DNA from: an uncultured Sphingomonas sp.
GTDB taxonomy: Bacteria; Pseudomonadota; Alphaproteobacteria; Sphingomonadales; Sphingomonadaceae
Assembly (NCBI GenBank): GCA_913776045.1
Contig: CAJYOI010000010.1
Location: 1 to 38,419 of the forward strand
Length of the DNA stretch: 38,419 bases
Direction of reading: 5' to 3'
In this document: one piece after another, positions 9,211 to 33,554 of the stretch
How the letters are laid out: each line of letters begins with the position of its first letter
How positions within the stretch are numbered: the first letter of the stretch is position 1
Position numbers and translations under genes: made by a program
The notes under the pieces: model-generated
The model's database searches: none
What the model was told of the DNA's origin: nothing
What the model saw: only the letters and a program-made list of their open reading frames with translations

Positions 9211-9214
9211 TTGA

Positions 9215-10668
<1,454 letters not shown>

Positions 10669-10672
10669 AATC

Positions 10673-11620
10673 ATGAAAATCGCACTCGCCGGCGCCGGCG
10701 CTTTTGGTGAAAAGCACCTCGACGGGCTGAAGAACATCGACGGTGTCGAGGTCGTATCGGTCGTCGGCCGCAACCTCGAGCCGACGCAAGCGGTCGCCGC
10801 CAAATACGGCATCGCCCATGCGACGACCGAGCTGGCCGAAACGCTCGCGCTGCCGGGGCTCGACGCGGTCATCCTGTGCACGCCGACCCAGATGCACGCC
10901 GCCCAGGCGTTACAGTGCCTGGAGGCGGGCAAGCACGTTCAGGTCGAGATTCCGCTGTGCGATAATCTCGCCGATGGTGAGGCGGTGCTGGCCATGGCGC
11001 AGAAAACCGGCCTGACCGCGATGGTCGGCCACACACGCCGCTTCAACCCCAGCCACCAGTTCGTCCACAACAAGATCGCGGCGGGCGAGCTGAACATCCA
11101 GCAGATGGACGTCCAGACCTATTTCTTCCGCCGCAAGAACATCAATGCCAAGGGCGAGCCGCGGTCGTGGACCGATCATCTGCTGTGGCACCACGCGGCG
11201 CACACGGTCGACCTGTTCGCGTATCAGGCAGGCCCCATCGTCCAGGCGAACGCGATTGAAGGGCCGCATCATCCCGAGCTCGGCATCGCGATGGACATGT
11301 CGATCCAGCTGAAGGCGGAGAGCGGTGCGATCTGCACCCTGTCGCTGAGCTTCAACAACGACGGCCCGCTCGGCACCTTCTTCCGCTACATCGGCGACAC
11401 GGGAACCTATATCGCCCGGTACGACGATCTGGTGACCGGCAAGGAAGAGCCGATCGACCTGACCGGCGTGGCGGTGTCGTCGAACGGCATCGAATTGCAG
11501 GACCGCGAATTCATCGCCGCGATCCGCGAAGGCCGCGAGCCCAATGCCAGCGTCGCGCAGGTCCTGCCCTGCTACCGCGTGCTCGACGCGCTGGAAAAGC
11601 AACTCGAAGCCGCGCGGTGA
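10673..11620 (+). CDS. ligC: 4-carboxy-2-hydroxymuconate-6-semialdehyde dehydrogenase
   Basis: NADP-dependent oxidation of the ring-cleavage product (as its cyclic hemiacetal) to 2-pyrone-4,6-dicarboxylate. It has 315 residues of the Gfo/Idh/MocA type. The N-terminal Rossmann motif is GAGAFGEKH. Next come LCTPTQMHAAQ and HVQVEIPLCDN, where Gfo/Idh proteins usually have EKP. HTRRFNPSHQFVH and DHLLWHHAAHTVDLF follow in the substrate domain. The ATG has a repeat-borne ribosome site six bases upstream. The stop overlaps pobA as GTGA. Confidence 0.95.
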   Translation: MKIALAGAGAFGEKHLDGLKNIDGVEVVSVVGRNLEPTQAVAAKYGIAHATTELAETLALPGLDAVILCTPTQMHAAQALQCLEAGKHVQVEIPLCDNLADGEAVLAMAQKTGLTAMVGHTRRFNPSHQFVHNKIAAGELNIQQMDVQTYFFRRKNINAKGEPRSWTDHLLWHHAAHTVDLFAYQAGPIVQANAIEGPHHPELGIAMDMSIQLKAESGAICTLSLSFNNDGPLGTFFRYIGDTGTYIARYDDLVTGKEEPIDLTGVAVSSNGIELQDREFIAAIREGREPNASVAQVLPCYRVLDALEKQLEAAR

Positions 11621-12786
11621 AGACCGGGGTCGTCATCGTCGGCGCGGGGCCATCCGGGCTGCTGCTTGGGCACCTGCTTCGCGCGGCCGGGGTCGACTGC
11701 GTCGTCGTCGAGCGCCAGTCGCCTGATTATGTCCTCGGTCGCATTCGCGCCGGCGTGCTGGAAACGGTGACGACCGACCTGATGACGCGGCTCGGGCTCG
11801 ACGCGCGTTTGAAGGCGGAGGGACTGGTCGAGGAAGGCTTCAACCTGGCCACCGCCGACCATCTGATCCGCATCGACATCGCCGCGCTGACTGGCCGCCA
11901 CGTCACCGTCTATGGCCAGACCGAAGTGACCCGCGACCTGATGGACGCGGCACCCGCGCGCGGGCTGCGCGTGATCTACGAGGCGAAGGACGTCACACTC
12001 CACGACGTCGCCGGCGATGCCCCGTACGTGACCTATACGAAGGACGGCGCCGAGCATCGGGTCGACGCGCAGTTCATTGCCGGCTGCGACGGTTTCCACG
12101 GCGCGTCACGCAAGGCGATTCCCGCCCCTGCGGCGCGCGAGTTCGAGCGCGAATATCCCTTCGGCTGGCTGGGCATCCTGGCCGATGTGCCGCCGTGCCA
12201 CCCCGAACTGATCTACGCGAATACAACCAAGGGCTTCGCCCTCGCCTCGATGCGGTCGTCGACGCGAAGCCGCTATTACATCCAGGTACCGCTGACCGAC
12301 CGGGTCGAGGACTGGAGCGAGGAGCGGCTGTGGGACGAGCTTGCCGAGCGGTTCGATCCGCTCAGCGACCACAAGGTCACTCGCGGGCCAGCGCTCGAAA
12401 TGTCGATCGCGCCGCTCAGGTCCTACGTCTTCGAGACGATGCGCCACGGCCGCCTGTTCCTTGCCGGCGACAGCGCCCACATCGTCCCGCCGACGGGTGC
12501 GAAGGGCCTGAACCTGGCCGCCTCCGACGTCGCCTATCTGGCCGACGCGCTGATCGGCTTCTTCACCCGCGGTGACGAAAGCGGCCTGACCGGTTATCAA
12601 GCGCGTGCCCTGGCGCGCATCTGGAAGGCGGAACGTTTCAGCTGGTATCTGACCAAGCTGATGCATCGATTCCCCGAGGATGGCGCGTTCGAGCACCGGA
12701 TGCAGACCGCCGAGCTCGACTATGTCGCGACCTCACGCGCGATGCAGACCGCGATCGCGGAGAATTACGTGGGACTGCCGCTCTGA
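11617..12786 (+). CDS. pobA: 4-hydroxybenzoate 3-monooxygenase
   Basis: FAD- and NADPH-dependent hydroxylation of 4-hydroxybenzoate to protocatechuate, feeding LigAB. It has 389 residues, nearly the length of the Pseudomonas enzyme, with the same landmarks in order: GAGPSGLLLG (FAD), DYVLGRIRAGVLE (substrate and NADPH-binding Arg), YGQTEVTRDLM, GCDGFHG (DG motif), STRSRYYIQVPLT (Ser, Arg and Tyr contacting the carboxylate and phenol), GDSAHIVPPTGAKGLNLAASD (FAD ribityl), and IAENYVGLPL at the C-terminus. The GTG start at 11617 overlaps the ligC stop; the next gene starts within the pobA stop codon. Confidence 0.96.
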   Translation: MKTGVVIVGAGPSGLLLGHLLRAAGVDCVVVERQSPDYVLGRIRAGVLETVTTDLMTRLGLDARLKAEGLVEEGFNLATADHLIRIDIAALTGRHVTVYGQTEVTRDLMDAAPARGLRVIYEAKDVTLHDVAGDAPYVTYTKDGAEHRVDAQFIAGCDGFHGASRKAIPAPAAREFEREYPFGWLGILADVPPCHPELIYANTTKGFALASMRSSTRSRYYIQVPLTDRVEDWSEERLWDELAERFDPLSDHKVTRGPALEMSIAPLRSYVFETMRHGRLFLAGDSAHIVPPTGAKGLNLAASDVAYLADALIGFFTRGDESGLTGYQARALARIWKAERFSWYLTKLMHRFPEDGAFEHRMQTAELDYVATSRAMQTAIAENYVGLPL

Positions 12787-21597: not shown

Positions 21598-24030
21598 ATG
21601 GGTTGGACCACGTTGGCGGTGACGCTGCTCGGTACGGTCGCGCCACCGCAGCAGACGGCCACCCCATCCGCCGGCGCTGACCAGGCGCCGCCCACCCGAA
21701 CCGCCGATACCGAAACCCAGCCCGGCGACATCGTCGTCACCGCGCAGAAGCGTGAACAGTCGTTGCAGGACGTGAGCGCCGCGGTCAGTGCGATCGGCGC
21801 CGATCGGCTGCAGACCGCGCAGGTCGCGACGCTCCAGGATCTGCAGACGATCGTTCCGTCGGTCAACTTCGGCAGCGACTTCAACCAGGCGAAGATCTTC
21901 ATCCGCGGCGTCGGAGCGAACACGTCGACCACAGGCAGTTCGACCGGCGTCGCCTTCCACGTCGACGGCGCCTATGTCGCGCGCGCCGAGGCGCAACTGA
22001 CCAGCCTGTTCGACCTGGAACGGGTCGAAGTCCTGCGCGGGCCGCAGGGCACGCTCTATGGCCGCAACGCGGTCGGCGGGTCGATCAACCTGATCACCGC
22101 AAAGCCGTCGGCGGACGTCGGCGGCTATGCCCGGTTGACCTATGGCGCGTATAACCAGCTGATCGCCGAAACCGCGCTGACCGGCGCGCTGACCGACGGC
22201 ATCCGCGCGCGTATTGCCGCCCGGATCGAGAACCGCGACGGCTATGGCGTCAACCCGGTCACCGGCCGCGACGTCGACGATCTGAAGCGCCGCATGGTCC
22301 GCGGCCAGATCGCCGTCGATCTGAGCCCCAGCGTCGAATATCTGCTGTCCGGAGAATATTTCCGGCAGGACGACAGCTCGGGCGCGATCCATTACCTGCG
22401 CGCGTCCTTCCCCGGCGTAACCCGCCTGCCGCCGCTCGGTGTCGGTGGATATGCGCAACGCCCGCGCGACCTCGCCTCGGAAAGCCAGGTCGGCACCGAT
22501 ACCGAAACCTGGGCCACTACCGGCACGTTGCGCGCCGATCTGTCGAGCACCATCAGTCTCTCCAACATCACCAATTACCGCCGCTTCCGTTCGTCGCTGT
22601 TCCAGGATCTCGACCTGTCCGGCGTCGTCGACAGTCTGGCGAGCAACGGTCAGGCGACCACCAACCAGGAACGCCGCATCGACAGCAAGCAGTTCAGCAA
22701 CGAACTCCAGCTGAACTACACCGGCCGCCTCGGCAGCGTGGTCCTCGGCGGCTATTATTTCCACGAGCGTCAGCGGCCGATCGACAATGTCGGCTTGGCG
22801 CCACGCAACGGCCAGGCGAGCAACATCGCCGTCCTGACCGCGGCCGGGATCAACCTGAACGAAGCGTACGGCCTGTGCGGCTATGGGCCGGGCACGCTGT
22901 CGGGCGTGCAGGTGATCGCGCCCAAGCGGGTCTGCACCCGGTCGAACCTCGGCACGCGCGCGTTCGCCGTGTTCGGTCAGGCGAACATCGATCTGGCAGC
23001 ACTGTCGGGCGGCCTGAACGGTCTGCGCGTCAAGCTCGGCGGGCGGTACAGCGACGAGCGCGTGACGTCGGAGAACCCGTCGATCGTCATTACCCGCAAC
23101 GGCCTTGGCCCGGTGCTGCGCTACACCGCCGACCAGACCCGCCGCGCCCGCACCTTCCGCGATTTCACACCGGAAGCCGGGCTCGAGTGGAAGGCCAACG
23201 CCGATCTGCTACTCTATTACACCTATTCGGAAGGGTTCAAGGCGGGCTCGGGCGAGAATGCGTCGGGCTCGACGACGATCGTCGACCCGGAACGCATCTT
23301 CAATCACGAAGCAGGCATCAAGGCCGAGCTCAGCCGCGCGCTGACCGTCAACGCGTCGGTCTATCACTATCGGCTCGACGGGTTGCAGCTGAACAAGACC
23401 ATTTCTGGCGGACCGAGCGGCTACACCACGATCTTCCAGAACGCCGCCAGCACCAAGGCCGACGGCGTCGAGCTCGAACTCTTCGCCCGCCCGTCGCGCG
23501 ATGTGCGACTGTCCGGTGCCCTGTCCTATGTCGATGCGCGGTTCACCGACTATCTGACGCTCGATCCGCTCAACCCCGCCAACGTCGCCTCCGCCGGATC
23601 GCCGGCATATAACGCCGCGACCAATCCCGATCCGACCGCCTTCGGCGCGCCCGGCGGCGGTACTATCCAGCTCGCCGGCAATGCGGTGCGCAATACCCCG
23701 CGCTGGGCCTGGAACGTGCACGGCGAGCTCGACACGCCCGACGGCGCGCTGCCCGGCAAGCTGACCGTCCTTGCCGACGTGTCGTACAAGAGCCGCATCT
23801 ATTTCAGCGAATTCGAACGCGAGATCGAAAGTTCGAAAGCCTATACCCAGGTCGACATGGCGATCAGCTATGTGACCGCGGATCGGCGACTGAAGGCGGA
23901 CCTGTTCATGAAGAACGTGTTCGACGTCTTCCGCCCGTCGAGCACGTTCGCGCTCGCGACCAGCCGCCTGATCGGCGTCACCTACCTGCCGCCGCGGACC
24001 TACGGCGTGTCGCTTGGCTACAATTTCTGA
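21598..24030 (+). CDS. TonB-dependent outer-membrane receptor
   Basis: 810 residues. A short hydrophobic signal peptide is followed by a Pro/Ala linker, then the TonB box region DIVVTAQKREQSLQDV at about 42-57. The plug carries RVEVLRGPQGTLYGRNAVGGSINL, and the 22-strand barrel ends in an aromatic residue (SLGYNF). The GGGAGAG ribosome site is five bases before the ATG. It lies between the C1 genes and a LysR regulator. In sphingomonads such receptors import aromatic compounds such as lignin dimers as well as siderophores; no iron-related gene is nearby, so aromatic uptake is favoured. Confidence 0.92.
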   Translation: MGWTTLAVTLLGTVAPPQQTATPSAGADQAPPTRTADTETQPGDIVVTAQKREQSLQDVSAAVSAIGADRLQTAQVATLQDLQTIVPSVNFGSDFNQAKIFIRGVGANTSTTGSSTGVAFHVDGAYVARAEAQLTSLFDLERVEVLRGPQGTLYGRNAVGGSINLITAKPSADVGGYARLTYGAYNQLIAETALTGALTDGIRARIAARIENRDGYGVNPVTGRDVDDLKRRMVRGQIAVDLSPSVEYLLSGEYFRQDDSSGAIHYLRASFPGVTRLPPLGVGGYAQRPRDLASESQVGTDTETWATTGTLRADLSSTISLSNITNYRRFRSSLFQDLDLSGVVDSLASNGQATTNQERRIDSKQFSNELQLNYTGRLGSVVLGGYYFHERQRPIDNVGLAPRNGQASNIAVLTAAGINLNEAYGLCGYGPGTLSGVQVIAPKRVCTRSNLGTRAFAVFGQANIDLAALSGGLNGLRVKLGGRYSDERVTSENPSIVITRNGLGPVLRYTADQTRRARTFRDFTPEAGLEWKANADLLLYYTYSEGFKAGSGENASGSTTIVDPERIFNHEAGIKAELSRALTVNASVYHYRLDGLQLNKTISGGPSGYTTIFQNAASTKADGVELELFARPSRDVRLSGALSYVDARFTDYLTLDPLNPANVASAGSPAYNAATNPDPTAFGAPGGGTIQLAGNAVRNTPRWAWNVHGELDTPDGALPGKLTVLADVSYKSRIYFSEFEREIESSKAYTQVDMAISYVTADRRLKADLFMKNVFDVFRPSSTFALATSRLIGVTYLPPRTYGVSLGYNF

Positions 24031-24126: not shown

Positions 24127-25041
24127 ATGCGGTTTAAAGGCCTCGACCTCAATCTCGTCGTCGCGCTCGATATCCTGTTGCAGGAGCGCAGCGTGTCGCG
24201 ATCGGCGGAGCGGCTGAAGCTCAGCCAGCCGGCGGTCAGCGCCGCGCTTGCCCGGCTACGCGACTATTTCAACGACGAGCTGCTGGTGTCGATGGGCCGA
24301 TCGATGATCCCGACCGCCTATGCCGAATCGCTGTGGCCGATCGCCCGCGACCTGCTGGCGAAGGCGGACCTGCTGATCGACACTTCGTCGAGCTTCGACC
24401 CCGCCACCTCGCGACGCCGCTTCCGGGTCAGCGCATCCGATTTCATCCAGACCGTCCTGGTCGCGCCGGCGCTGCGCGCGATGCAGGACACCGCGCCGGG
24501 GATCAGCCTGGACGTTGGGCCGACCGGATCGAACAGCATCACCCTGTTCGAAAATGGCGAGATCGACTGCATCATCAGCCCCGAACAATATGCCTCGCCC
24601 TCGCACCCGGTCCGGCCGCTGTTCGCCGACAATCATGTCGTGGTCGGCTGGCGCGACAACCCGGCGATGTGCCGGCCGCTCGATCTGGACAGCTTCCTGA
24701 CGCTCGGCCATGTCGCGGTACGGATCGGGTCGGGGCGCGAGCTGACCTTCGCGGAACGCCATATGCTCCCCTACAGCGACCAGCGGCGGATCGAGGTGTC
24801 GAGTTCGACCTTCTCCGGCGTTCCGCTGATGCTGCCGCGGACGCAGCGGATCGCGGTGTTGCAGCAACGGCTGGCGGCGGCGTTCTGCGATCCGTTCGAC
24901 CTGGTAATGCAACCGCTGCCGTTCGAGATGCCGCCGCTGCGCGAAGTCGCGCAATATCATTCCAGCCGCGCGAACGATGCCGGCATCGCCTGGCTGATCG
25001 ACACGTTCCAAACGGTCGCCGCGAACGGCGCGGCCGGTTAG
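24127..25041 (+). CDS. LysR-family regulator, NodD/NahR type
   Basis: 304 residues with one N-terminal HTH (FKGLDLNLVVALDILLQERSVSRSAERLKLSQPAVSAALARLRDYF). The LDLNLL-type start and the following RFRVSASDF segment are characteristic of the NodD/NahR/SyrM group, which sense aromatic inducers. It lies between the first TonB receptor and the leftward meta-cleavage operon. Its stop overlaps the FAA hydrolase stop by four bases in convergent orientation. It is the likely regulator of the operon and/or the receptor (inference). Confidence 0.92.
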   Translation: MRFKGLDLNLVVALDILLQERSVSRSAERLKLSQPAVSAALARLRDYFNDELLVSMGRSMIPTAYAESLWPIARDLLAKADLLIDTSSSFDPATSRRRFRVSASDFIQTVLVAPALRAMQDTAPGISLDVGPTGSNSITLFENGEIDCIISPEQYASPSHPVRPLFADNHVVVGWRDNPAMCRPLDLDSFLTLGHVAVRIGSGRELTFAERHMLPYSDQRRIEVSSSTFSGVPLMLPRTQRIAVLQQRLAAAFCDPFDLVMQPLPFEMPPLREVAQYHSSRANDAGIAWLIDTFQTVAANGAAG

Positions 25042-25982
25042 GCGCGCACCACCCGCTGCTCGATCGCCCCGAACGGTGCGCGGCCATCGGCCAGCCGCGC
25101 CTCCATCCGCACGGTGTCGCCGAAGCGCATGAAGTCGGTGCGCGCCTTGCCTTCGTCGACGATCTCGATCCCGCGCCGCTCGGCGATGCAGGTCGATCCG
25201 ACCTCGCGGAAATTCGCGTTCGACACGGTGCCCGAACCGATGATTGTTCCCGCCGGCAGCGACCGCGTGCGTGCGGCATGAGCGATCAGGTCGTGGAAGC
25301 CGAACGCCATCGCCGCGCCGTTGGGAGCGCCGAACCGCGCCCCGTTCCAGTCGACCAGCAGGTCCAGGCACACCCGCCCGTCGTGCCAGGCATCGCCCAG
25401 TTCGTCCGGCGTCACCGCGATCCCCGCCATGGCGCAGGCGGGCTTGGCCTGGACCCAGCCGAAGCCGGTCTTCATTTCCGGCCCGGCCAGCGCGCGCAGC
25501 GACCAGTCGTTGATCTGGACGACCAGCCGCACATGATCGAGCGCCGCCGCGGCCGGCGTTCCCATCGGTACGGCATCGACGATCACCCCGAATTCGCCTT
25601 CGAAATCGATGCCGAGATCCTCGGACGGCAGCGGTACATCGTCGTGCGGGCCGTAGAAGCGATCGGACAGCCCCTGGTACATCAGCGGCAAGCCGGTGCG
25701 TTCGGGCGAGATGCCGAACACCTGATCCATCAGCGCGCCGTGGCTGTCGAAGGCCGATCCGTCGAGCCATTGCCACGCGCGCGGGAGCGGCGCGGCGAGC
25801 GTGTGCCGATCGAGCGGATCGGGAAAGTCCGCGATTGCCCGGCAGGTAGCGCCGTGCGCGTCCCACTGCTCGAGCAAGTGCTGCATCGTCGCGACCGGCG
25901 CTGGCGCGCAGCGGGTGCCGTCAGGAGAAACGACGACGAGACGTCCATCGGGCGTGCCGTCGCGAAGAGTGGCGAAGCGCAT
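25038..25982 (-). CDS. Fumarylacetoacetate hydrolase-family enzyme
   Basis: 314 residues of the FAH fold. The metal ligands are visible in DFEGEFGVIVD (two Glu) and QINDWSLRAL (Asp), and IIGSGTVSNANF is the usual glycine loop. Family members hydrolyse, hydrate, isomerise or decarboxylate 2-oxo-acids from ring-cleavage pathways; trihydroxytoluene breakdown uses one (DntG). The ATG at 25982 lies five bases after the cyclase stop, with GAGGA upstream. A longer open frame to 26222 is not used. It is the last gene of the five-gene leftward operon and probably performs the last carbon-bond or tautomer step. Confidence 0.9.
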   Translation of the reverse strand: MRFATLRDGTPDGRLVVVSPDGTRCAPAPVATMQHLLEQWDAHGATCRAIADFPDPLDRHTLAAPLPRAWQWLDGSAFDSHGALMDQVFGISPERTGLPLMYQGLSDRFYGPHDDVPLPSEDLGIDFEGEFGVIVDAVPMGTPAAAALDHVRLVVQINDWSLRALAGPEMKTGFGWVQAKPACAMAGIAVTPDELGDAWHDGRVCLDLLVDWNGARFGAPNGAAMAFGFHDLIAHAARTRSLPAGTIIGSGTVSNANFREVGSTCIAERRGIEIVDEGKARTDFMRFGDTVRMEARLADGRAPFGAIEQRVVRA

Positions 25983-25987
25983 CGGCG

Positions 25988-26767
25988 TCAGTCCTCGAAA
26001 ATCGCAACGGCGCGGGTCCAGCCCGCCGACCCGCGCTTCACCTTGGCGGGGAAGCAGGACACAGTGAAGCCCGAGGCGGGCAGCTGGTCGAGATTGGTCA
26101 GCTTTTCCATGTGGCAATAGCCGATGTCGCGCCCGGCCTTGTGCCCTTCCCAGATCAGCGACGTGTCGCCGGTTTCCGCGACCTTCTTCGCCGTGGCGGC
26201 GAAGGGCGCGTCCCAGCTCCACGCGTCGGTGCCGGTTACGCGCACGCCGCGGCTCGTGAGATACATCGTCGCCTCATAGCCCATGCCGCAGCCTTTCCCG
26301 AGAAAGTCGAGACTGCCGACCGCCGCCCCCGCCGCGGTATTGACCAGCACGATGTCGAGGGGCTGCAGGTCGTATCCGATCCGCTCCAGCTCCGCCTCGA
26401 CGTCGGCCGCGGTTGCGACATAGCCGTCGGGCAGGTGGCGGAAGTCGAGCTTCACGCCGGGTCGGAAGCACCAGTCGAGCGGCACCTCGTCGATCGTGAT
26501 CGCAGGTTTCCCACCGTCCATCGTCGGATGATAATGCCACGGCGCGTCGAGGTGGGTGCCGTTGTGCGTCGTCAGCGTCAGCGTTTCGGACGCCGCGAAG
26601 CCAAGACCGCCCGGCATCTGTTCCGCGGTCAGGCCGGGAAAGAAATTCTGTACTTCCGCGACCGTTTCCTCGTGCGTCTGATAGGTGATCGACGGCCGCA
26701 TGAACGGCGGGTCGGTGATGACGTCCGGGTCGAGCGTGATCGACAGGTCGAGGAACCGGCGGGTCAT
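25988..26767 (-). CDS. Cyclase-family metal hydrolase (kynurenine formamidase-like)
   Basis: 259 residues with the signature HNGTHLDAPWH (His68, His72, Asp74, His78), the metal site of the cyclase/KynB/isatin hydrolase family (PF04199). GVRVTGTDAWSWDAPF and a late SCFPAKVKRGSAGW follow. Known members open lactones, isatin or formamides. In this operon it could hydrolyse a lactone or amide formed after ring cleavage. The ATG overlaps the previous stop (ATGA), so it is tightly coupled to the alpha/beta hydrolase. Confidence 0.88.
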   Translation of the reverse strand: MTRRFLDLSITLDPDVITDPPFMRPSITYQTHEETVAEVQNFFPGLTAEQMPGGLGFAASETLTLTTHNGTHLDAPWHYHPTMDGGKPAITIDEVPLDWCFRPGVKLDFRHLPDGYVATAADVEAELERIGYDLQPLDIVLVNTAAGAAVGSLDFLGKGCGMGYEATMYLTSRGVRVTGTDAWSWDAPFAATAKKVAETGDTSLIWEGHKAGRDIGYCHMEKLTNLDQLPASGFTVSCFPAKVKRGSAGWTRAVAIFED

Positions 26768-27921
26768 GCGACGCGCCCGCCCAGCGTGTCGGCGAACCAG
26801 TCGGCGATGTAGTCGCGGCCGAAGCTCATATTATCGGCGCCGACATGCTCGACCCCGCCCTCGCGCGCGGTGAACAGCTTCAGTTCGCGACGGGGCGCAT
26901 TGACCAGCTGGTCGTGCAGGTCATGGGCATAGGCGACGCTGATCTGGCGATCGTGCGCACCGTGGGTGACCAGGAACGGCACGCGGATGCGGTCCATGTG
27001 GCCGTTTAGGTTCATGTCGGTCGATTTGGCGAGGAAATCGTCCATGTCGGCCGCGCCGAACGCCCACATGACGTGCGCCCAATAGTGCGGGACCGGATTC
27101 TCGCCTTCGCGCTTCATGCGCTTGTCCTGCACCTCGCGCCAATTGTGGTTGGCGCCCCATACCGCGCCGCTGGCGAAGCGCGGTTCGTAGGCGACCGCCC
27201 GCGGCGCGAAATGCCCGCCCAATGAAATGCCGGTCATGCCGATCCGCTTCGGATCGACATCGTCGCGCGCCTCGAGCCAGTCGACGGCCTTCGATGCCCA
27301 ATTTTCGCTATGCGGGTCGACCGGCAGCTCCTGCAGACGCAGCGCCTCGCCCGAGCCGGGCTGGTCGACGCAGAGGGTGGAGATGCCGCGCCGTGCAAGC
27401 GCATGCGGCAGCTTCGACCAGTACAGCAGCTCCTTGCAGCTATCGAGGCCGTTGCAATAGACGACGACCGGCTTCGGCCCGTCGCCCGGCGCGCGGGTGT
27501 AGAGCGCAGGCATCGTGCCCTTGGACAGCGGCACTTCGACGCGTTCGCGCGGCAGGCTTCCTAGCATAGTCGAACGGTCGAACGTCTCGCGCGCCTTGGC
27601 ATAGGTCGCCTTGCGCCCGGGATGGCCGTGCCCCTGCATCCGTTCGGCGACCAGCAGATAGAGCGACGCGCGCTCCAGCTTGTCGGAGGCGGAGAAGCCG
27701 CGTCCGCGCGCCTCGTCCTCCTCGGCCAGGCCGATCAGCGTGTCCGCCATCTCGACCCATTTCGCCATGAACTGCGGCGTCCCGGCGTCCGCTCCGCCCG
27801 CCGCCGCATCGCGGATCGGCTGGCACATGTCGACGATCTCGCCGATCTGCGCGCCGCTTTCCAGCGCCATCGCGACCGACAGGTTCCAGATGTAGTTCGG
27901 GAAATATTCGAACAGCGCCAT
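26764..27921 (-). CDS. Alpha/beta hydrolase with long helical N-terminal domain (C-C hydrolase-like)
   Basis: 385 residues. The first about 130 are helical (ALFEYFPNYIWNLSVAMALESGA and KLERASLYLLVAERMQ). Then comes a hydrolase core with GISLGG (Ser233), THGAHDRQ (Asp324) and GVEHVGAD (His359). This size and layout resemble 2,6-dihydroxypseudooxynicotine hydrolase, which cleaves a C-C bond next to a ring, and related DUF1100/FrsA-type proteins (family comparison from memory). The ATG at 27921 lies five bases after the dioxygenase stop. In the operon it would fit cleavage of a meta-cleavage product or acyl side chain. Confidence 0.85.
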   Translation of the reverse strand: MALFEYFPNYIWNLSVAMALESGAQIGEIVDMCQPIRDAAAGGADAGTPQFMAKWVEMADTLIGLAEEDEARGRGFSASDKLERASLYLLVAERMQGHGHPGRKATYAKARETFDRSTMLGSLPRERVEVPLSKGTMPALYTRAPGDGPKPVVVYCNGLDSCKELLYWSKLPHALARRGISTLCVDQPGSGEALRLQELPVDPHSENWASKAVDWLEARDDVDPKRIGMTGISLGGHFAPRAVAYEPRFASGAVWGANHNWREVQDKRMKREGENPVPHYWAHVMWAFGAADMDDFLAKSTDMNLNGHMDRIRVPFLVTHGAHDRQISVAYAHDLHDQLVNAPRRELKLFTAREGGVEHVGADNMSFGRDYIADWFADTLGGRVA

Positions 27922-27926
27922 GGGTC

Positions 27927-28829
27927 TTACACCTCCGCCGGCTGGAACAGCGCGGGATCGGGCTTGGGATGCGGCATGGTCTGCGGCCCGCCGACACCGA
28001 CGCCCCACTGGTCCATCACCTGCGGTCCCGGCACATGGACCTGCGCCTCGTGCGCGTGGAAATCGACGTCCTCCAGCTCGGACGTATATTCGACCGCGAA
28101 GCCATTGGGCGTCGTGAAATAGCTGAATGTATTGTTGCCCGCCGTGTGACGTCCCGGCCCCCACAGGATGTCGGTGCCCTTCTTCCGCAGCCGGCTGATA
28201 CCGCGCATCATGTCGTCGACGGTCAGCACGTCATAGGCGACGTGGTTCAGGCACGGCGGTCCCGGCAGGAAGGCGATGCGGTGATGTGCCTGGTTGCAGC
28301 GCAGGAAGGCCATGAAGTCGCCCAGCCAGTCGCTCAGCTTGAAGCCAAGCACGTCGATGAAGAACTGCACCGCCGCCTTGTGATCGGGCGAGTGCAGGAC
28401 GATGTGGCTGATCTTCTGGGGCACCGCGTCCCAGCGCGCCATCGTCCGCTTGGAGCCTTCGGCAACGTCGCTCGACACTTCGAACGGCAGGCCGTCCGGC
28501 GAGAAGAAACGGAAGCCATAGCCGCCGCCCGGCGACGTCAGGTCGCGTGGGGCGAAGATGATCCGGCAGCCGGCCGCGACCACCCGGTCGTGGATCGCAT
28601 CGACGTCGGCGCGGGCGTCGGCCGCCAACGCGATCACGTCGACCCGCGCGACATCGTCCCGGCGCAGGCGGACGACGTGATTTTCGGCATGCCCCTGCGC
28701 CTTGAAATAGGCCATGCCATCGTCGCTGGCGACGGGTTCGAGGCCCCAGACGTCGGCGTAGAAGGCGCGTTCGGCCTCCATGTCCGGCATGGCATAGCCC
28801 ACGTAGCGGATGTCTGTAACTCGGCTCAT
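27927..28829 (-). CDS. Type I (VOC-fold) extradiol ring-cleavage dioxygenase
   Basis: 300 residues of two VOC modules in the BphC/2,3-dihydroxybiphenyl dioxygenase pattern. Predicted iron ligands are His142 (KISHIVLH), His196 (CLNHVAYD) and Glu247 (GFAVEYTSE). Active-site neighbours are His183 (QAHHRIAF), His228 (GPGRHTAGN) and Tyr237 before TPNGF. It is unrelated to LigAB, so the window holds two separate ring-cleavage systems. The ATG at 28829 follows GAGGA eight bases upstream; the open frame further upstream is antisense. It lies 40 bases after the flavin monooxygenase, which would supply its diphenol. Confidence 0.92.
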   Translation of the reverse strand: MSRVTDIRYVGYAMPDMEAERAFYADVWGLEPVASDDGMAYFKAQGHAENHVVRLRRDDVARVDVIALAADARADVDAIHDRVVAAGCRIIFAPRDLTSPGGGYGFRFFSPDGLPFEVSSDVAEGSKRTMARWDAVPQKISHIVLHSPDHKAAVQFFIDVLGFKLSDWLGDFMAFLRCNQAHHRIAFLPGPPCLNHVAYDVLTVDDMMRGISRLRKKGTDILWGPGRHTAGNNTFSYFTTPNGFAVEYTSELEDVDFHAHEAQVHVPGPQVMDQWGVGVGGPQTMPHPKPDPALFQPAEV

Positions 28830-28869
28830 TGGTCGGTCCTCGGGTATCTTTGGCGCGGTGGCGGTTGGA

Positions 28870-29985
28870 TCAGATGGGTTGCGAAACGACGGCGAACATC
28901 TCGCGCGTGGCGGCGGCGTTATCGACCGGCTCGGACAGGCCGAGCTGCCCGCGGCAGATCGCCAGGCTGGATCGCACGATGTAGGCACAGCGGTCGTAGC
29001 GTCGGTCACGATAGGCGCGGAAGGCGGCCTCGGGCGTGTCCTGACGCGCGATTTCCTGCGCGAGCACGATCGAATCCTCGATCGCCATGCCGGCGCCCTG
29101 CCCCAGGTGCGGAGTCGTCGCATGCAGCGCATCGCCCAGCAGGACGACGCGCCCGCTATGCCAGTCGCCGTCGACGATCAGCGTTTCGAGCGGGCGATAG
29201 ACGACAGCGTCGTCGTCGATGATCCCGCCCACCAGCGCCTGCACCGCGGCCGGCGCGGCGGCAAGCTTACCCCGCATCGCGGCGGCCAGCCCTTCGCGTG
29301 GATAGCGCGTGCCCGCCGCCTCGGGCGTGGTCACGAACATGTAGATCTGGTCGGCGCTCATCGGCACCAGCCCGATGCCGATCGGCCCGTTGTAGGCCTG
29401 CAGCGCGTCGAGCCCGTCGGGACGCGGCAGATTGTACCGCCAGACCGCCTGCCCGGTATACGCGGGCGTCGGCGCATCCGGAAACAGTCGGCTGCGGGTC
29501 TGCGAATAGACGCCATCGGCGCCGACGACGATGTCGACGGTGCGCTCCTCGCCGGTCGACAGCGTGACGTGAACCGCGTCGCCACAGTCGTCGATGTCTG
29601 TTGCTGTGACGCCCAGCAATACTTCGACCCCGTCGTCGATCACGCGATCGGCCAGAACCCTGTGCAGTGCGGGTCGGGCGATGCCGACGTTGGCCGGATA
29701 GCCCGGAACCAGATTCGGTGACGGCACGCGTGCGACGCAGACGCCGGCCGGCGTAAACACTTCGACGTGGTCGAAACCACAAGCGGCACCGAGATAGGAA
29801 TCGATCAGCCCCAAGTCGCTCATCGCACGGATAACGTTCGACTGTTGGATGATGCCGACACCGTAGACCGACCAGGACGGATCCTTTTCGATCACCGTGA
29901 CCGCGTGACCGTCGCGCCGCAGCGCGATGGCTGCGGTCAGCCCGCCGATACCGCCGCCGATAACCAGAATGTCGAGCCGTTTCAT
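28870..29985 (-). CDS. FAD-dependent aromatic monooxygenase (class A flavoprotein)
   Basis: 371 residues. GGGIGGLTAAIALRRDGHAVTVIEKD is the FAD dinucleotide fold, VVGADGVYSQTR the DG motif, and VVLLGDALHATTPHLGQGAGMAIED the GD motif. It resembles salicylate- or 3-hydroxybenzoate-type hydroxylases and differs from PobA in the substrate region. The ATG at 29985 follows AGGGG. It is the first gene of the leftward operon and is expected to hydroxylate, perhaps with loss of a carboxyl group, a phenolic substrate to the diphenol for the dioxygenase. Confidence 0.9.
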   Translation of the reverse strand: MKRLDILVIGGGIGGLTAAIALRRDGHAVTVIEKDPSWSVYGVGIIQQSNVIRAMSDLGLIDSYLGAACGFDHVEVFTPAGVCVARVPSPNLVPGYPANVGIARPALHRVLADRVIDDGVEVLLGVTATDIDDCGDAVHVTLSTGEERTVDIVVGADGVYSQTRSRLFPDAPTPAYTGQAVWRYNLPRPDGLDALQAYNGPIGIGLVPMSADQIYMFVTTPEAAGTRYPREGLAAAMRGKLAAAPAAVQALVGGIIDDDAVVYRPLETLIVDGDWHSGRVVLLGDALHATTPHLGQGAGMAIEDSIVLAQEIARQDTPEAAFRAYRDRRYDRCAYIVRSSLAICRGQLGLSEPVDNAAATREMFAVVSQPI

Positions 29986-30083
29986 GCCAAGCGCCCCTGC
30001 ACAGCATCCGTCCAACAGCGCTTCGCCGATTCCATCACCCTCTCCCTGCGATATTCGACAAGGCTAAGCGAGCAGGTGCGATA

Positions 30084-30195
30084 GATAAAATGAGTTTATT
30101 GGATCATTTATTATCACTTCTGGTTATGCAACTTCGTGTCCGCAAGCATCATCTTTATCGATTGCCATGTATATAAATTACTCATTTTTATTATC
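30084..30195. promoter_or_regulatory. AT-rich divergent control region with three GATAA...AATGA repeats
   Basis: In a GC-rich window this 110-base stretch is strikingly AT-rich. It holds three related blocks: GATAAAATGAGT at 30084-30095 (plus), GATAATAAATGA at 30104-30115 (minus) and GATAATAAAAATGAGT at 30180-30195 (minus). The first two face each other with starts 20 bases apart, about two helix turns. It lies between the flavin monooxygenase operon and the second TonB receptor, so a regulator bound here could control both. TATAAA at 30172 is a possible -10. Confidence 0.5.
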
Positions 30196-30264
30196 TCTCG
30201 ACGGATCGCATGTTCGCCCCCGAAACGAACCGGCTGGATCGGTCGGATTGGGGAGGATTTTGAA

Positions 30265-32592
30265 ATGCGAGATCGCATGATGGTGTCGCTCATCGCACTA
30301 TGCATGACCGTGCCGGCGATGGCACATGCCCAGGACGCCCCGGCAGCGCCCGCCGCCGGCGGTCAGACCGACGAAGACGACGCCGATCAGGGCCTGAAGG
30401 ACATCGTCGTCACAGCCCAGCGGCGCTCCGAGAACCTCCAGCGGGTGGCGGTGCCGGTCACGGCGGTCACCGGCGACGCGCTGGCGAACGCCGGCGTCAC
30501 CGAAACCGCAAACCTCAGCAAGCTGGTGCCATCGCTTATTGTGCAGCCGACCGGCGGCACGACCAGCTTCTTCCTGCGCGGTGTCGGTACCGCGTCGCAG
30601 AATTCCTTCTCCGAAAACGCGATCGCGTTCAATTATAACGGCGTCTACATCGGCCGCCCGACCGCGCCGGCCGGCGTCTTCTACGATCTGGAACGCGTGG
30701 AAGTGGTGAAGGGGCCGCAGGGCACGCTCTATGGCCGCAACGCGACCGGCGGCGCTATCAACGTCCTGCCGCGCAAGCCCGAACTCCGCAATTTCTCGGC
30801 CGAGGGTCTGCTCGAATACGGCAATTACGACGCGAAGAAGGGGTTCGCCGCGGTCAATCTGCCGGTGGGCGAGTCGGTGGCGCTGCGCTTGGCCGGTCAG
30901 GTCGTTGATCGCGACGGCTATCTGTCCGACGGCTATGACGACGAACGCGGCGAAGCGGCGCGCGCATCGCTGCTGATCCGTCCATCGTCCGACTGGTCGA
31001 TGACGCTCGTCGGCGACTATTATCATCAGCATGGCAAGGGGTCGGGCGCGGTCTTACTTTCGAGCGCCGCCTTCACTGCGCCGCCGCTGAAGGACCGTAT
31101 CGGCCTCGCCGATCCGCGCGCCAATGCGATCATCGCCGGCTATGCCGCGACCGTCTTCGCACCGCCCTTCTGCGGCGGCTTCGGCGGCTTCGTCCGCAGC
31201 GGCTGCGTATCGACCGCGCGCGGCGACGGCTATCTCGACAACCGTTTCTACGGTCTCAGCGCGCAGGTCGAAGGCGACATGGGCTTCGCCTCGCTGACCG
31301 TGCTGCCGGCCTATCGCAAATCGAAGGTCGATCTCGAAACTTACGTCCCCGGTTTCCTCGGCAAGCTGCAGGAGGACACCGACCAAATGTCGCTGGAGGT
31401 TCGCCTGACGTCGCCCGACAGCGGCCGACTGCGCTACGTTCTCGGCACCTTCTTCTTCAACGAACAGCAGGATGCGACCAACTTCTTCCGCCAGGGCAAT
31501 ATCTCGACCACGCGCTTCACGCCCAACGTGAAAACGCAGAGCCTGGCGGCATTCGGCCAGCTGACCTTCGCCGTCACCGACTCGCTGCGCCTGATCGGCG
31601 GCGGTCGCTACACGAAGGAAGACAAGAGCCAGCGCACCGCTGCGGCGTCGGGCGGCCTGCCGGGGCCGATCGAACCGACACTCGGCACGCCGGTCACGGG
31701 TGCCCTGACCTTCGAGAAGTTCACCTGGAAGGCGGGCGTCGAGCTGGACGCCGGTCCGGCATCGCTCGTCTATGCGAACGTCGCGACGGGCTTCAAATCG
31801 GGCGGCTTCTTCGTCGCGTCGCCGCCGAACAACACCTATGCCCCCGAAGAGCTGACCGCCTACACGGTCGGGACCAAGAACCGGTTCTTGGACAACAAGC
31901 TGCAGGTCAATCTCGAGGCGTTCTACTGGAAATATCTCAATCAGCAGATCACCTTCGTCGGCGGCGTGCCGACCGGCAACGGCATCTTCGCGCAAGGGTC
32001 GGTCACGACCAATGCCGGGCGATCGCATATGTACGGCGTCGAGCTCGACCTGCGCTTCGCGCCCAGCCGCTTCGACCAGTTCTTCGTCAACGTCCAATAT
32101 CTGCGCGGCAAATACGACACGCTGCGCACAGCCAACTTCTCGCCGACCGGCAGCCCGGTACCGACCGGCTGCACCGTCACCAGCACGCGCGCCGCCAATC
32201 CCGGCATCAACGGCGCGCTGTTCTTCGACATCGACTGTTCGGGCAAACCGACGGCCAACTCCCCCGAATGGGCGGCGAACATCGGTTACGAGCGGACGGT
32301 GGAACTCGGCGGCGATCTATCGCTGTTGCTGGGCGCACGCACCAATCTTGAAACGTCGCGCTTCCTCAACACCAACTACCGGCCCGAGGAAACGCAGGGC
32401 GGCTTCATGATGTCGGACCTGTACGCGACACTGCGCGGCCCGGAAAACCGGTGGAGCGTCACCGGATTCGTCAACAATGTCGAGAACCGCGCGGTGCTCG
32501 CACGGGCCGGCACCCGACCGATCCTGAACTTCCCCGTCGGGACGCTGCGCCCGCCGCGAACCTATGGCGTTCGCGTCGGGTTCGGTTTCTGA
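30265..32592 (+). CDS. TonB-dependent outer-membrane receptor, second
   Basis: 775 residues. It has a clear signal peptide (MMVSLIALCMTVPAMAHAQ) and an acidic linker, then DIVVTAQRRSENLQ as TonB box at about 50-63. The plug carries RVEVVKGPQGTLYGRNATGGAINV, and the barrel ends in VRVGFGF. The ATG at 30265 is eight bases after GGGGAGG; the open frame from 30136 runs through the AT-rich promoter and is not used. It is divergent from the meta-cleavage operon and overlaps the MBL hydrolase gene by one base. It probably imports the operon's substrate across the outer membrane (inference). Confidence 0.93.
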   Translation: MRDRMMVSLIALCMTVPAMAHAQDAPAAPAAGGQTDEDDADQGLKDIVVTAQRRSENLQRVAVPVTAVTGDALANAGVTETANLSKLVPSLIVQPTGGTTSFFLRGVGTASQNSFSENAIAFNYNGVYIGRPTAPAGVFYDLERVEVVKGPQGTLYGRNATGGAINVLPRKPELRNFSAEGLLEYGNYDAKKGFAAVNLPVGESVALRLAGQVVDRDGYLSDGYDDERGEAARASLLIRPSSDWSMTLVGDYYHQHGKGSGAVLLSSAAFTAPPLKDRIGLADPRANAIIAGYAATVFAPPFCGGFGGFVRSGCVSTARGDGYLDNRFYGLSAQVEGDMGFASLTVLPAYRKSKVDLETYVPGFLGKLQEDTDQMSLEVRLTSPDSGRLRYVLGTFFFNEQQDATNFFRQGNISTTRFTPNVKTQSLAAFGQLTFAVTDSLRLIGGGRYTKEDKSQRTAAASGGLPGPIEPTLGTPVTGALTFEKFTWKAGVELDAGPASLVYANVATGFKSGGFFVASPPNNTYAPEELTAYTVGTKNRFLDNKLQVNLEAFYWKYLNQQITFVGGVPTGNGIFAQGSVTTNAGRSHMYGVELDLRFAPSRFDQFFVNVQYLRGKYDTLRTANFSPTGSPVPTGCTVTSTRAANPGINGALFFDIDCSGKPTANSPEWAANIGYERTVELGGDLSLLLGARTNLETSRFLNTNYRPEETQGGFMMSDLYATLRGPENRWSVTGFVNNVENRAVLARAGTRPILNFPVGTLRPPRTYGVRVGFGF

Positions 32593-33554
32593 TGCTGCGC
32601 TTCTCGCTGATCGCCCTGCTCGCCTTGATCGTCGCGCCGCCTGCCGTCTCTCAGTCGACGGGAGGGAACAGCTTCGTCACTCTGGGCACGATGGGCGGGC
32701 CGGTGGCGAACCCGAAGCGGTCGCAGCCCGCGAACCTGCTGCTGCGCGGAAAGGACGCGTATCTGGTCGATTGCGGTGATGGCGCTGTGCAACAGATGGG
32801 CAAGGCCGGCGTCCTGCTGCCGCAGGTCCGCGCCGTATTCCTGAGCCATCTGCACGTCGACCACACGGGCGGCCTGGCCGCCCTGCTGGGCCTGCGCAAC
32901 CAGACAGAAATCCGATCGGTCCTGACCGTCTACGGGCCGCCGGGCACCAAGGCGCTGGTCGATGGCATCGTGGCGTCGATGGCGCCGGCTGCGAAGGCGG
33001 GATATGGCTATCCCGGTCAGTCCTGGGCCGATCCGGCATCCATCGTGACCGTCGTCGAATTCGGCGACGATGCGCGCGTGTCCATCGACGGAATGACCGT
33101 TACCGCGGTCCAGAACACGCACTACGACTTCCCACGCGGATCGGCAGAGGATACCGCCTACAAATCCCTGTCGTTGCGCTTCGACCTGCCGGACCGGTCG
33201 ATCGTGTACACCGGCGACACCGGCCCGAGCACGGCCGTCGAGCGCCTGGCTAAGGGGGCCGACCTACTGGTCAGCGAGATGATCGATGTCGAAGGCACGC
33301 TGGGGGTCGTTCGGCATAACGCACCCAACATGCCGCCCCCGGCGCAGCAGAAGCTGATCCGGCACCTGACGATGCACCATCTTACTCCCGGAGACGTCGC
33401 GGCCCTGTCGCAGCGCGCCGGTGTGAAGGCCGTCGCGATCACCCATTTCTCCGCCGGCCCGGATAATCCCGAACGGACAGCCAGAGACCTGGCGACCATC
33501 GCGCAGACCTACGCCGGCCCGGTACGGATCGCGAATGATCTGGACCGTTTCTGA
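32592..33554 (+). CDS. Secreted MBL-fold metallo-hydrolase
   Basis: 320 residues with an N-terminal signal peptide (MLRFSLIALLALIVAPPAVSQS), so it acts in the periplasm or outside. The metal motif is SHLHVDHTGG (His86, His88, Asp90, His91). QNTHYDFP, YTGDTGPS and ITHFSAGP supply further ligands, as in RNase Z-like/arylsulfatase-like MBL enzymes. Its ATG shares one base with the receptor stop. A periplasmic ester, sulfate or lactone hydrolase that trims the compound imported by the receptor is a reasonable reading of the context. Confidence 0.88.
   Translation: MLRFSLIALLALIVAPPAVSQSTGGNSFVTLGTMGGPVANPKRSQPANLLLRGKDAYLVDCGDGAVQQMGKAGVLLPQVRAVFLSHLHVDHTGGLAALLGLRNQTEIRSVLTVYGPPGTKALVDGIVASMAPAAKAGYGYPGQSWADPASIVTVVEFGDDARVSIDGMTVTAVQNTHYDFPRGSAEDTAYKSLSLRFDLPDRSIVYTGDTGPSTAVERLAKGADLLVSEMIDVEGTLGVVRHNAPNMPPPAQQKLIRHLTMHHLTPGDVAALSQRAGVKAVAITHFSAGPDNPERTARDLATIAQTYAGPVRIANDLDRF

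What the first reader, a model, noticed from the sequence alone, without database searches (positions are those of the whole stretch)
25038..29985. Unassigned five-gene meta-cleavage operon separate from the lig pathway
A flavin monooxygenase, a BphC-like extradiol dioxygenase with intact iron ligands, an alpha/beta hydrolase shaped like C-C hydrolases, a cyclase-family hydrolase and an FAA hydrolase are packed with gaps of 40 bases or less. The chemistry reads as hydroxylate, open ring, hydrolyse, open lactone or amide, then final cleavage. I know of no described pathway with exactly this set. The combination monooxygenase + extradiol enzyme + FAA enzyme recalls dinitrotoluene (Dnt) breakdown, but the two extra hydrolases do not. 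A NodD-type regulator and two TonB receptors flank it. A lignin-related aromatic with an acyl or amide side chain is my best guess.
Basis: partly seen in the sequence, partly recalled or inferred. Interest (0 to 1): 0.78.

Follow-up and report, generated by a model that had tools for sequence, protein, structure and literature searches.

The report
Sphingomonad flavonoid ring-cleavage operon
Five packed genes in a Sphingomonas-type bacterium most likely take apart plant flavonoids (the pigments and signals that roots release) by opening the flavonoid A-ring; the route looks like a new version of a pathway already known from other soil bacteria, with one key enzyme very different and two parts missing.

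Summary
Observation confirmed: five intact minus-strand genes (flavin monooxygenase, BphC-type extradiol dioxygenase, alpha/beta hydrolase, cyclase-family hydrolase, FAA hydrolase) at 25038-29985, gaps 40, 5, -4, 5 bases. The claim that no described pathway has this set is not supported: it matches the fde/ifc flavonoid A-ring cleavage clusters. Against a Burkholderia cluster of that layout the window proteins are 56% (hydrolase), 72% (cyclase), 61% (FAA) and 40% (monooxygenase) identical; the dioxygenase only 27%; Rieske partner and cupin are absent. The hydrolase's nearest sequence and fold is a C-C hydrolase (2jbw). In 396 Sphingomonadales genomes, 40 carry the close dioxygenase. All 22 genomes with a C-glycoside-deglycosidase homologue are among the 40, 13 with both within 20 kb. 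pobA is in 39 of 40 (42 of 356 others), but the lignin gene DesA is enriched too, so co-occurrence is only partly specific. Best reading: C8 hydroxylation, A-ring opening, retro-Claisen loss of oxaloacetate, lactone opening, cleavage to an aryl acid for the neighbouring pobA-lig genes. Nothing was assayed, and no Herbaspirillum or Variovorax protein could be compared. A new variant of a known kind.

The parts
28870..29985 (-). FAD monooxygenase (FdeE/IfcA-like); predicted flavonoid C8-hydroxylase
   Evidence: FAD_binding_3; PRK06847 subfamily 442.6 bits, cut-off 372; GxGxxG and GD motifs present, F motif absent as reported for FdeE; 36-44% to FMOs of the non-sphingomonad clusters, 66-68% to three sphingomonad ones; clade
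27927..28829 (-). VOC-family extradiol dioxygenase, presumed ligands H142/H196/E247; predicted to open the A-ring of an 8-hydroxyflavonoid; far from the FdeC-like enzyme of the Burkholderia cluster
   Evidence: Full-length match to PDB 3b59, 510 bits; 27% to the Burkholderia cluster dioxygenase by BLASTP; ligands invariant in 9 of 9
26764..27921 (-). alpha/beta hydrolase, presumed triad S233/D324/H359; predicted retro-Claisen C-C hydrolase releasing oxaloacetate
   Evidence: Best PDB sequence hits 2jbw and 8qd7; Foldseek order 2jbw, FrsA, SMU_737, Wdyg1p, AntI; triad residues invariant in 19 of 19
25988..26767 (-). cyclase-family metal-dependent hydrolase (FdeG-like); predicted pyranone/lactone opener
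   Evidence: PF04199; 72% to the Burkholderia and Azospirillum cluster cyclases; H68/H72/D74 invariant in 6 of 6; weak hits to isatin hydrolase and kynurenine formamidase
25038..25982 (-). FAA hydrolase; predicted final beta-diketone cleavage
   Evidence: PF01557 + PF18288; 61% to the Burkholderia cluster FAA; PDB 3lzk, then 8gsr and FAHD1 far weaker
24127..25041 (+). LysR-type regulator, convergent with the operon
   Evidence: HTH_1 + LysR_substrate; 35-45% to LysR proteins of six other clusters; a LysR relative within 9 kb in 30 of 41 sphingomonad loci
21598..24030 (+). TonB-dependent receptor 1; uptake role possible but it is not a conserved neighbour
   Evidence: Plug + barrel; as best match it appears beside only 1 of 49 other sphingomonad loci, at 28%
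30265..32592 (+). TonB-dependent receptor 2, divergent from the operon; candidate substrate uptake
   Evidence: Plug + barrel; relatives, often with the MBL gene, beside several operons; some TonB receptor relative within 9 kb in 27 of 41 loci
32595..33554 (+). MBL-fold hydrolase, apparently exported (signal peptide judged by eye); role unknown
   Evidence: Lactamase_B_2; relative within 9 kb in 13 of 41 loci
29986..30264 (.). divergent promoter region; AT-rich inverted pair (30085-30099 and about 30178-30192), possible operator
   Evidence: Sequence; first element searched; not enriched upstream of 38 sphingomonad monooxygenase genes
11617..12786 (+). PobA, 4-hydroxybenzoate 3-monooxygenase; proposed sink for the B-ring acid
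   Evidence: TIGR02360 610 bits, cut-off 538.7; in 39 of 40 operon genomes against 42 of 356 others
9177..10561 (+). LigA and LigB, protocatechuate 4,5-dioxygenase (two overlapping ORFs as listed); proposed downstream route
   Evidence: TIGR02792 and PRK13366 above their cut-offs

Best explanation
A compact sphingomonad form of the fde/ifc flavonoid A-ring meta-cleavage pathway. Proposed chemistry for a 5,7-dihydroxyflavone such as apigenin: (1) the FAD monooxygenase adds OH at C8, giving a 7,8-catechol; (2) the extradiol dioxygenase cuts C8-C8a, leaving a pyran-2,4-dione with an oxaloacetyl side chain; (3) the alpha/beta hydrolase cuts C4a-C5 by a retro-Claisen reaction, releasing oxaloacetate and a 4-hydroxy-6-aryl-2-pyranone (C11H8O4); (4) the cyclase-family hydrolase opens the pyranone to a 5-aryl-3,5-dioxopentanoate; (5) the FAA hydrolase cuts this beta-diketone to an aryl carboxylate (4-hydroxybenzoate) and acetoacetate; PobA and the lig genes in the same window finish the ring. 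Shown here: gene content, conservation, homology, motifs, fold relatives, genome associations. Taken from papers on homologues: steps 1 and 2. Inferred: the C8-C8a position, steps 3 to 5, the exact flavonoid class and uptake by TonB receptors.
For: Homologues of all five genes sit together in fde-like clusters of Burkholderia and Azospirillum, and more weakly (FAA 26-30%, dioxygenase 22-25%) on a Deinococcus plasmid. Of 80 loci found with the hydrolase, 76 carry hydrolase + dioxygenase + monooxygenase relatives. In print: IfcA 8-hydroxylates isoflavones, IfcB gives a product from 8-hydroxydaidzein (incomplete conversion), and the cupin double mutant accumulates 2-hydroxy-5-(4-hydroxyphenyl)-4H-pyran-4-one, the isoflavone isomer of the pyranone predicted here; FdeE and FdeC are given as steps 1 and 2 for naringenin. 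The hydrolase's nearest sequence and fold is 2jbw, with polyketide-shortening enzymes close behind. Deglycosidase alpha-subunit homologue: 22 of 396 genomes, all 22 among the 40 with the close dioxygenase, 13 of 22 within 20 kb; solved relatives of the query include DgpC1, DgpB, DfgB and AgCarC2. pobA in 39 of 40 operon genomes.
Against: No H. seropedicae or Variovorax sequence was compared. The dioxygenase is only 27% identical to the Burkholderia cluster enzyme. No FdeD-like Rieske protein in 41 of 41 sphingomonad loci at E 1e-8 nor, in a search without a positive control, in the genome; no cupin in the operon nor, likewise, in the genome. Disrupting the Variovorax alpha/beta hydrolase did not affect daidzein degradation. 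The window's own genome has no deglycosidase homologue and no GH106 or GH78 match. Co-occurrence is partly non-specific: DesA is enriched too (25 of 40 against 16 of 356), and nothing was corrected for descent. 7 of 41 loci lack the consecutive three-gene core and 6 have no cyclase, cupin or FAA gene within 9 kb. FrsA and a peptidase rank above Ayg1p and AntI among the hydrolase's folds, and the model is weak (pLDDT 68.9, under 50 around S233, D324 and H359).
Confidence: 0.82

Rival explanations
1. Same logic, other substrate: a plant polyphenol with a phloroglucinol- or resorcinol-type ring that is not a flavonoid (xanthone such as mangiferin, chromone, acylphloroglucinol, anthraquinone).
For: C-glycoside deglycosidases were also tested on a xanthone and an anthraquinone glycoside, and some accept them; fold relatives of the hydrolase act on polyketide-derived phenols.
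Against: The characterised related clusters act on flavonoids; pobA in 39 of 40 operon genomes fits a 4-hydroxyphenyl B-ring.
Confidence: 0.1
2. An isoflavone-specific ifc pathway.
For: ifc has a monooxygenase, a glyoxalase-type dioxygenase and an alpha/beta hydrolase of the same kinds; IfcA homologues are reported from Sphingopyxis.
Against: ifc uses the IfcD cupins, absent from the operon and not found in the genome (no positive control); the window monooxygenase lies far from the one Bradyrhizobium plasmid homologue that I took as IfcA-like, though that row has a very long branch and its place is unsure; daidzein degradation in Variovorax did not need its hydrolase, while the hydrolase is the best conserved gene here.
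Confidence: 0.1
3. One reading: a lignin-related aromatic with an acyl or amide side chain.
For: The window carries DesA, LigK, LigA, LigB and PobA; DesA is enriched in operon genomes.
Against: All 22 genomes with a deglycosidase homologue have the close dioxygenase; related clusters degrade flavonoids; the lig genes are a general sink for aryl acids.
Confidence: 0.04
4. A dinitrotoluene-type (Dnt) or other nitroaromatic pathway.
For: Monooxygenase + extradiol + FAA enzyme; nearest solved regulators are 2uyf and 1uth (DntR as recalled).
Against: Hydrolase and cyclase have no place in Dnt (recalled) and belong to the conserved set.
Confidence: 0.01

Closest known systems
fde naringenin-degradation operon, Herbaspirillum seropedicae SmR1
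   Same: FAD monooxygenase for C8 hydroxylation and a dioxygenase for the A-ring (PMC10755750, PMC11303751, PMC8552027: passages read); LysR regulator FdeR (PMC10799723, passages); fde-like clusters elsewhere hold related hydrolase, cyclase and FAA enzymes
   Different: Here the dioxygenase is very different from the fde-like one (27%); no Rieske FdeD, cupin or epimerase in the operon; order monooxygenase-dioxygenase-hydrolase-cyclase-FAA. The H. seropedicae proteins themselves were not compared
ifc isoflavone cluster, Variovorax sp. V35
   Same: 8-hydroxylase, extradiol enzyme and alpha/beta hydrolase of the same kinds; a C11H8O4 pyranone intermediate (PMC11069340, passages and sections 16-17 read)
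   Different: No IfcD cupin here; isoflavone specificity untested; proteins not compared
2,6-dihydroxypseudooxynicotine hydrolase (2jbw); Wdyg1p/Ayg1p; AntI
   Same: Fold, triad residues and predicted C-C bond hydrolysis
   Different: About 24% identity or less in the Foldseek alignments; other substrates; FrsA and SMU_737 rank between 2jbw and Wdyg1p
PDB 3b59, VOC protein
   Same: Full-length relative of the window dioxygenase (510 bits); Novosphingobium origin recalled
   Different: No function in the listed name
Dgp/Dfg/Car C-glycoside deglycosidases
   Same: Homologues neighbour this operon in 12 of 41 sphingomonad loci, and annotated look-alikes lie beside a fde-like set on a Deinococcus plasmid
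   Different: Not found in the window's own genome

Membership tests
fde flavonoid A-ring meta-cleavage cluster | FdeE-like FAD monooxygenase | tested here: met
   40% to the Burkholderia cluster FMO; GxGxxG and GD motifs, no F motif, as reported for FdeE. H. seropedicae FdeE itself not available
fde flavonoid A-ring meta-cleavage cluster | FdeC-type extradiol dioxygenase | tested here: inconclusive
   Same superfamily and ligands, but 27% to the Burkholderia cluster enzyme. That enzyme's best solved relative is also 3b59 (53.5 bits; 1han 36), so a far-diverged orthologue and a separate recruitment are both possible
fde flavonoid A-ring meta-cleavage cluster | Rieske partner FdeD | tested here: not met
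   0 of 41 sphingomonad loci with one Burkholderia query at E 1e-8; none found in the genome, without positive control
fde flavonoid A-ring meta-cleavage cluster | cyclase (FdeG) and FAA hydrolase (FdeI) | tested here: met
   72% and 61% to the Burkholderia cluster; gene letters G and I recalled
fde flavonoid A-ring meta-cleavage cluster | cupin (FdeH/IfcD) | tested here: not met
   None in the operon; the Burkholderia cupin has no match in the window at 1e-5; none found in the genome. Cupin relatives in 20 of 41 other sphingomonad loci, some only 36-46% to the query
fde flavonoid A-ring meta-cleavage cluster | LysR regulator responding to flavonoids | tested here: inconclusive
   LysR beside the operon, 35% to the Burkholderia cluster regulator; response not testable
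fde flavonoid A-ring meta-cleavage cluster | growth on, or 8-hydroxylation of, naringenin | not testable with these tools
   needs enzymes or cultures
ifc isoflavone cluster | IfcD cupin | tested here: not met
   absent from the operon; not found in the genome (no positive control)
ifc isoflavone cluster | isoflavone-specific IfcA | not testable with these tools
   needs enzyme assays; Variovorax IfcA sequence not available
2,6-dihydroxypseudooxynicotine-hydrolase-like C-C hydrolases | alpha/beta core with N-terminal helices and a Ser-Asp-His triad | tested here: met
   best sequence and fold hit; S233, D324, H359 invariant in 19 of 19; the model is poor around the triad
Dnt dinitrotoluene pathway | monooxygenase, extradiol and FAA enzymes without C-C hydrolase or cyclase (recalled) | tested here: not met
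   hydrolase and cyclase are in the operon and in related loci; no Dnt protein was compared

The most novel reading that the evidence does not exclude
The operon, together with DesA, PobA and the lig genes in the same 38 kb, is a route for flavones that are built into or released with grass lignin, above all tricin, so that syringate from the B-ring meets DesA next door: a direct bridge between flavonoid and lignin catabolism, using an extradiol enzyme that may have been recruited independently of FdeC.
Probability: 0.12. Interest if true: 0.68.

Novelty: new variant of a known kind. Interest (0 to 1): 0.47.

Why it matters
It would give a function to a gene set seen in about a tenth of the sampled Sphingomonadales genomes and to a VOC dioxygenase type with a solved structure (3b59) whose listed name states no function. 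It proposes which hydrolase performs the step after ring opening, a step whose gene was left unidentified in Variovorax. It also suggests that many sphingomonads can remove plant flavonoids, some of them starting from C-glycosides.

Tried and rejected
Tried without result: a shared operator upstream of the monooxygenase genes; the AT-rich element in the window is not enriched in 38 upstream stretches. Direct comparison with H. seropedicae Fde or Variovorax Ifc proteins: neither organism was among the 80 loci kept from a capped scan, and the two Marin papers are not held, so what I say of them is recalled or second-hand. PMC4440368 had no fde gene names in its main text. The paper search for fdeB/G/H/I/J found 92 papers, of which the 20 listed were unrelated. 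Ten paper searches in all (open-licence PMC only, listings capped) showed me no description of this sphingomonad operon; PMC11069340 does mention IfcA homologues in Sphingopyxis. One actinobacterial relative of the dioxygenase (43%) was followed: a Rhodococcus cluster with a ring-hydroxylating dioxygenase; not pursued.

Rejected: chance packing (34 of 41 loci keep the three-gene core); a Dnt pathway; an exact fde or ifc member. The genome-level p-values ignore descent and are rough guides. DesA was run as a contrast and came out enriched, which weakens the pobA argument. On re-reading I mended: TonB receptor 1 is not a conserved neighbour; the dioxygenase is far from the fde-like one but separate origin is not shown; the hydrolase's fold list includes FrsA and a peptidase.
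Full report
WHAT IS THERE. The window is G000:C10:1-38419 of a 3.15 Mb genome in 68 contigs. Genome G373, marked 'same genus', has the same dioxygenase coordinates and contig length as plasmid NZ_CP110112.1 of Sphingomonas sp. R1, so the window is from the Sphingomonas group (inference). GC is even (0.672 operon, 0.667 window).

DOMAINS AND ACTIVE SITES. Pfam and NCBIfam give a FAD monooxygenase (PRK06847 subfamily, 442.6 bits, cut-off 372), a VOC extradiol dioxygenase, an alpha/beta hydrolase, a PF04199 'cyclase' and an FAA hydrolase. The dioxygenase keeps H142, H196 and E247, aligned with the BphC ligands (ligand identity recalled), and matches PDB 3b59 over its full length (510 bits). The hydrolase's best solved relatives by sequence are 2,6-dihydroxypseudooxynicotine hydrolase (2jbw, 74.7 bits) and the Yellowish-green-1-like protein 8qd7 (64.2 bits). 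An AlphaFold model of it is moderate (pLDDT 68.9, pTM 0.71; under 50 at 233-236 and 314-364, which hold the presumed triad). Foldseek puts 2jbw first (E 4.5e-18), then FrsA, the peptidase SMU_737, the polyketide-shortening enzyme Wdyg1p, AntI and Ayg1p. That 2jbw, Ayg1p/Wdyg1p and AntI hydrolyse C-C bonds of beta-dicarbonyl-type phenols is recalled; titles speak of polyketide shortening.

RELATION TO KNOWN PATHWAYS. A plasmid of Burkholderia anthina carries, in order, LysR, transporter, hydrolase, EthD protein, VOC dioxygenase, Rieske protein, FAD monooxygenase, MFS, cyclase, cupin, FAA hydrolase, epimerase. This fits the fde operon as I recall it; from papers, FdeC is Hsero_1005 and FdeE Hsero_1007, FdeD is a Rieske partner of FdeE, and fdeA is the first gene, next to fdeR. 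Window proteins against that cluster: monooxygenase 40%, hydrolase 56%, cyclase 72%, FAA 61%, LysR 35%, dioxygenase 31% by global alignment and 27% by BLASTP. Searched the other way, six of the eight Burkholderia proteins find the expected window gene; the cupin and epimerase find nothing at 1e-5. Of these 80, 79 have a dioxygenase relative, 77 a monooxygenase, 76 all three, 37 cyclase or cupin, and 34 the fuller set with FAA. So the window operon works like fde, but its dioxygenase is far from the fde-like one, and the Rieske protein and cupin are missing; the own-genome searches for those two found nothing but had no positive control. Whether the dioxygenase is a separate recruitment is open: the Burkholderia enzyme's best solved relative is also 3b59 (53.5 bits, against 36 for 1han). 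In a tree of 127 monooxygenases the main sphingomonad set (39 rows: 37 other sphingomonads, the window, one Haliea) is a starred clade, and a starred branch joins it with the Pseudomonas/Deinococcus type; the tree is quick and midpoint-rooted.

SURVEY OF SPHINGOMONADALES. Of 396 genomes (a sample of the order), 46 have a dioxygenase match at E <= 1e-60; 40 have one at 66% identity or more, the other 6 at 52-54%. I fetched all 49 places outside the window. For the 41 with a close dioxygenase, counted within about 9 kb and by tblastn at 1e-8: hydrolase 38, monooxygenase 36, the three consecutive on one strand 34, FAA 30, LysR 30, TonB receptor 27, MBL hydrolase 13, deglycosidase genes 12, pobA or ligB 4, Rieske 0. 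A few stretches end at contig ends. Among the 30 loci with FAA, 13 have cupin only, 10 cyclase only, 6 both, 1 neither; some cupin matches are only 36-46% to the query. The window is cyclase-only. None of the 8 loci with a distant dioxygenase has the hydrolase above 50% (one has a 31% relative). The close hydrolase (65% or more) is in 41 genomes and includes all 40 with the close dioxygenase. In the plasmid collection the same 12 sphingomonad records hold the best dioxygenase, monooxygenase and hydrolase matches, though in one Croceicoccus record the best monooxygenase hit lies far away.

SUBSTRATE EVIDENCE. A C-glycoside-deglycosidase alpha-subunit homologue (query from Sphingobium TomTYG65; nearest solved relative 8qvc, then DgpC1 and others; its partner DUF6379 protein hits 8qvc, DgpB, DfgB and AgCarC2) is in 22 of 396 genomes at E <= 1e-30: 13 genomes with a copy of 75-82% identity, 9 with one of 43-46% at best. 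All 22 belong to the 40 operon genomes (hypergeometric p 1.6e-25, no correction for descent). In 13 of the 22 it lies within 20 kb of the dioxygenase. These enzymes act on flavonoid C-glycosides, and some on a xanthone or an anthraquinone glycoside (PMC8563793, passages). pobA (E <= 1e-100) is in 39 of 40 operon genomes and 42 of 356 others, and within 20 kb of the dioxygenase in 12 of the 40. Against over-reading this: the lignin demethylase DesA at 63% or more is in 25 of 40 and 16 of 356, so operon genomes are rich in aromatic catabolism generally. Inside the 81 pobA-positive genomes the deglycosidase link still holds: 21 have it and all 21 are among the 39 with the operon (p 4.6e-9). The window's own genome has no deglycosidase homologue and no GH106 or GH78 match, so it probably uses aglycones or simple glucosides (inference).

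MECHANISM. Steps 1 and 2 rest on work with related proteins: FdeE and IfcA hydroxylate C8; FdeC and IfcB act next (IfcB conversion was incomplete); activity of FdeE correlates with OH at C5 and C7. The Variovorax cupin double mutant accumulates 2-hydroxy-5-(4-hydroxyphenyl)-4H-pyran-4-one (m/z 203.0353), which is what remains of daidzein when carbons C5 to C8 are removed after a C8-C8a cut (my reading). The same logic on a 5-hydroxyflavone gives an oxaloacetyl side chain on a pyran-dione; cutting C4a-C5 is a retro-Claisen reaction, which suits the hydrolase's relatives. That disrupting the Variovorax hydrolase had no effect on daidzein counts against a general need for it; daidzein lacks the C5-OH that makes the side chain a beta-diketone, which may explain it (inference). 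The atom balance for apigenin closes: C15H10O5 > C15H10O6 > C15H10O8 > oxaloacetate C4H4O5 + C11H8O4 > C11H10O5 > 4-hydroxybenzoate C7H6O3 + acetoacetate C4H6O3. Steps 3 to 5 are inference.

NEIGHBOURHOOD. In the first 21 kb lie aromatic-acid MFS transporters, 4-oxalomesaconate tautomerase, LigK, LigA, LigB, a Gfo/Idh dehydrogenase in the place of LigC, PobA and DesA, a likely sink for 4-hydroxybenzoate, protocatechuate and syringate. The regulator's nearest solved relatives are 2uyf and 1uth. Receptor 1 is not a conserved neighbour; receptor 2 with the MBL gene recurs.

VERDICT. A real, conserved operon, most likely for flavonoid A-ring cleavage (0.82). A new variant of a known kind, not a new kind. 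Papers: PMC11069340 abstract, outline, passages, sections 16 and 17; PMC11303751, PMC8552027, PMC10755750, PMC10799723, PMC8563793, PMC10653915 and PMC4440368 passages only; Marin 2013 and 2016 not seen (recalled).

Noticed in passing
window 18513-19898 (+): DesA-type syringate O-demethylase (838.7 bits, cut-off 800), with a 52% relative elsewhere in the genome at G000:C2.
   Followed up: partly
L130-L137 (8 loci): A second sphingomonad dioxygenase-monooxygenase pair (dioxygenase 51-54%, monooxygenase 37-42% to the window) beside a TonB receptor; none has the hydrolase above 50% (L133 has a 31% relative). Substrate unknown.
   Followed up: no
L014 (Burkholderia sp. Ax-1719): Two fde-like gene sets side by side, one of them more diverged.
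   Followed up: no
L142 (Sphingomonas aliaeris plasmid): A cytochrome P450 gene is annotated between the hydrolase and the cyclase of the operon.
   Followed up: no
L005 (Deinococcus aetherius plasmid): Annotated sugar isomerase, DUF6379 and GMC oxidoreductase genes next to an fde-like set with a VOC dioxygenase only about 25% identical to the window's.
   Followed up: partly
window 29986-30264: AT-rich inverted pair in the divergent promoter region; not enriched upstream of other sphingomonad copies.
   Followed up: partly
window 32595-33554 (+): MBL-fold protein with an apparent signal peptide (by eye), with relatives beside the operon in 13 of 41 loci; role unknown.
   Followed up: no
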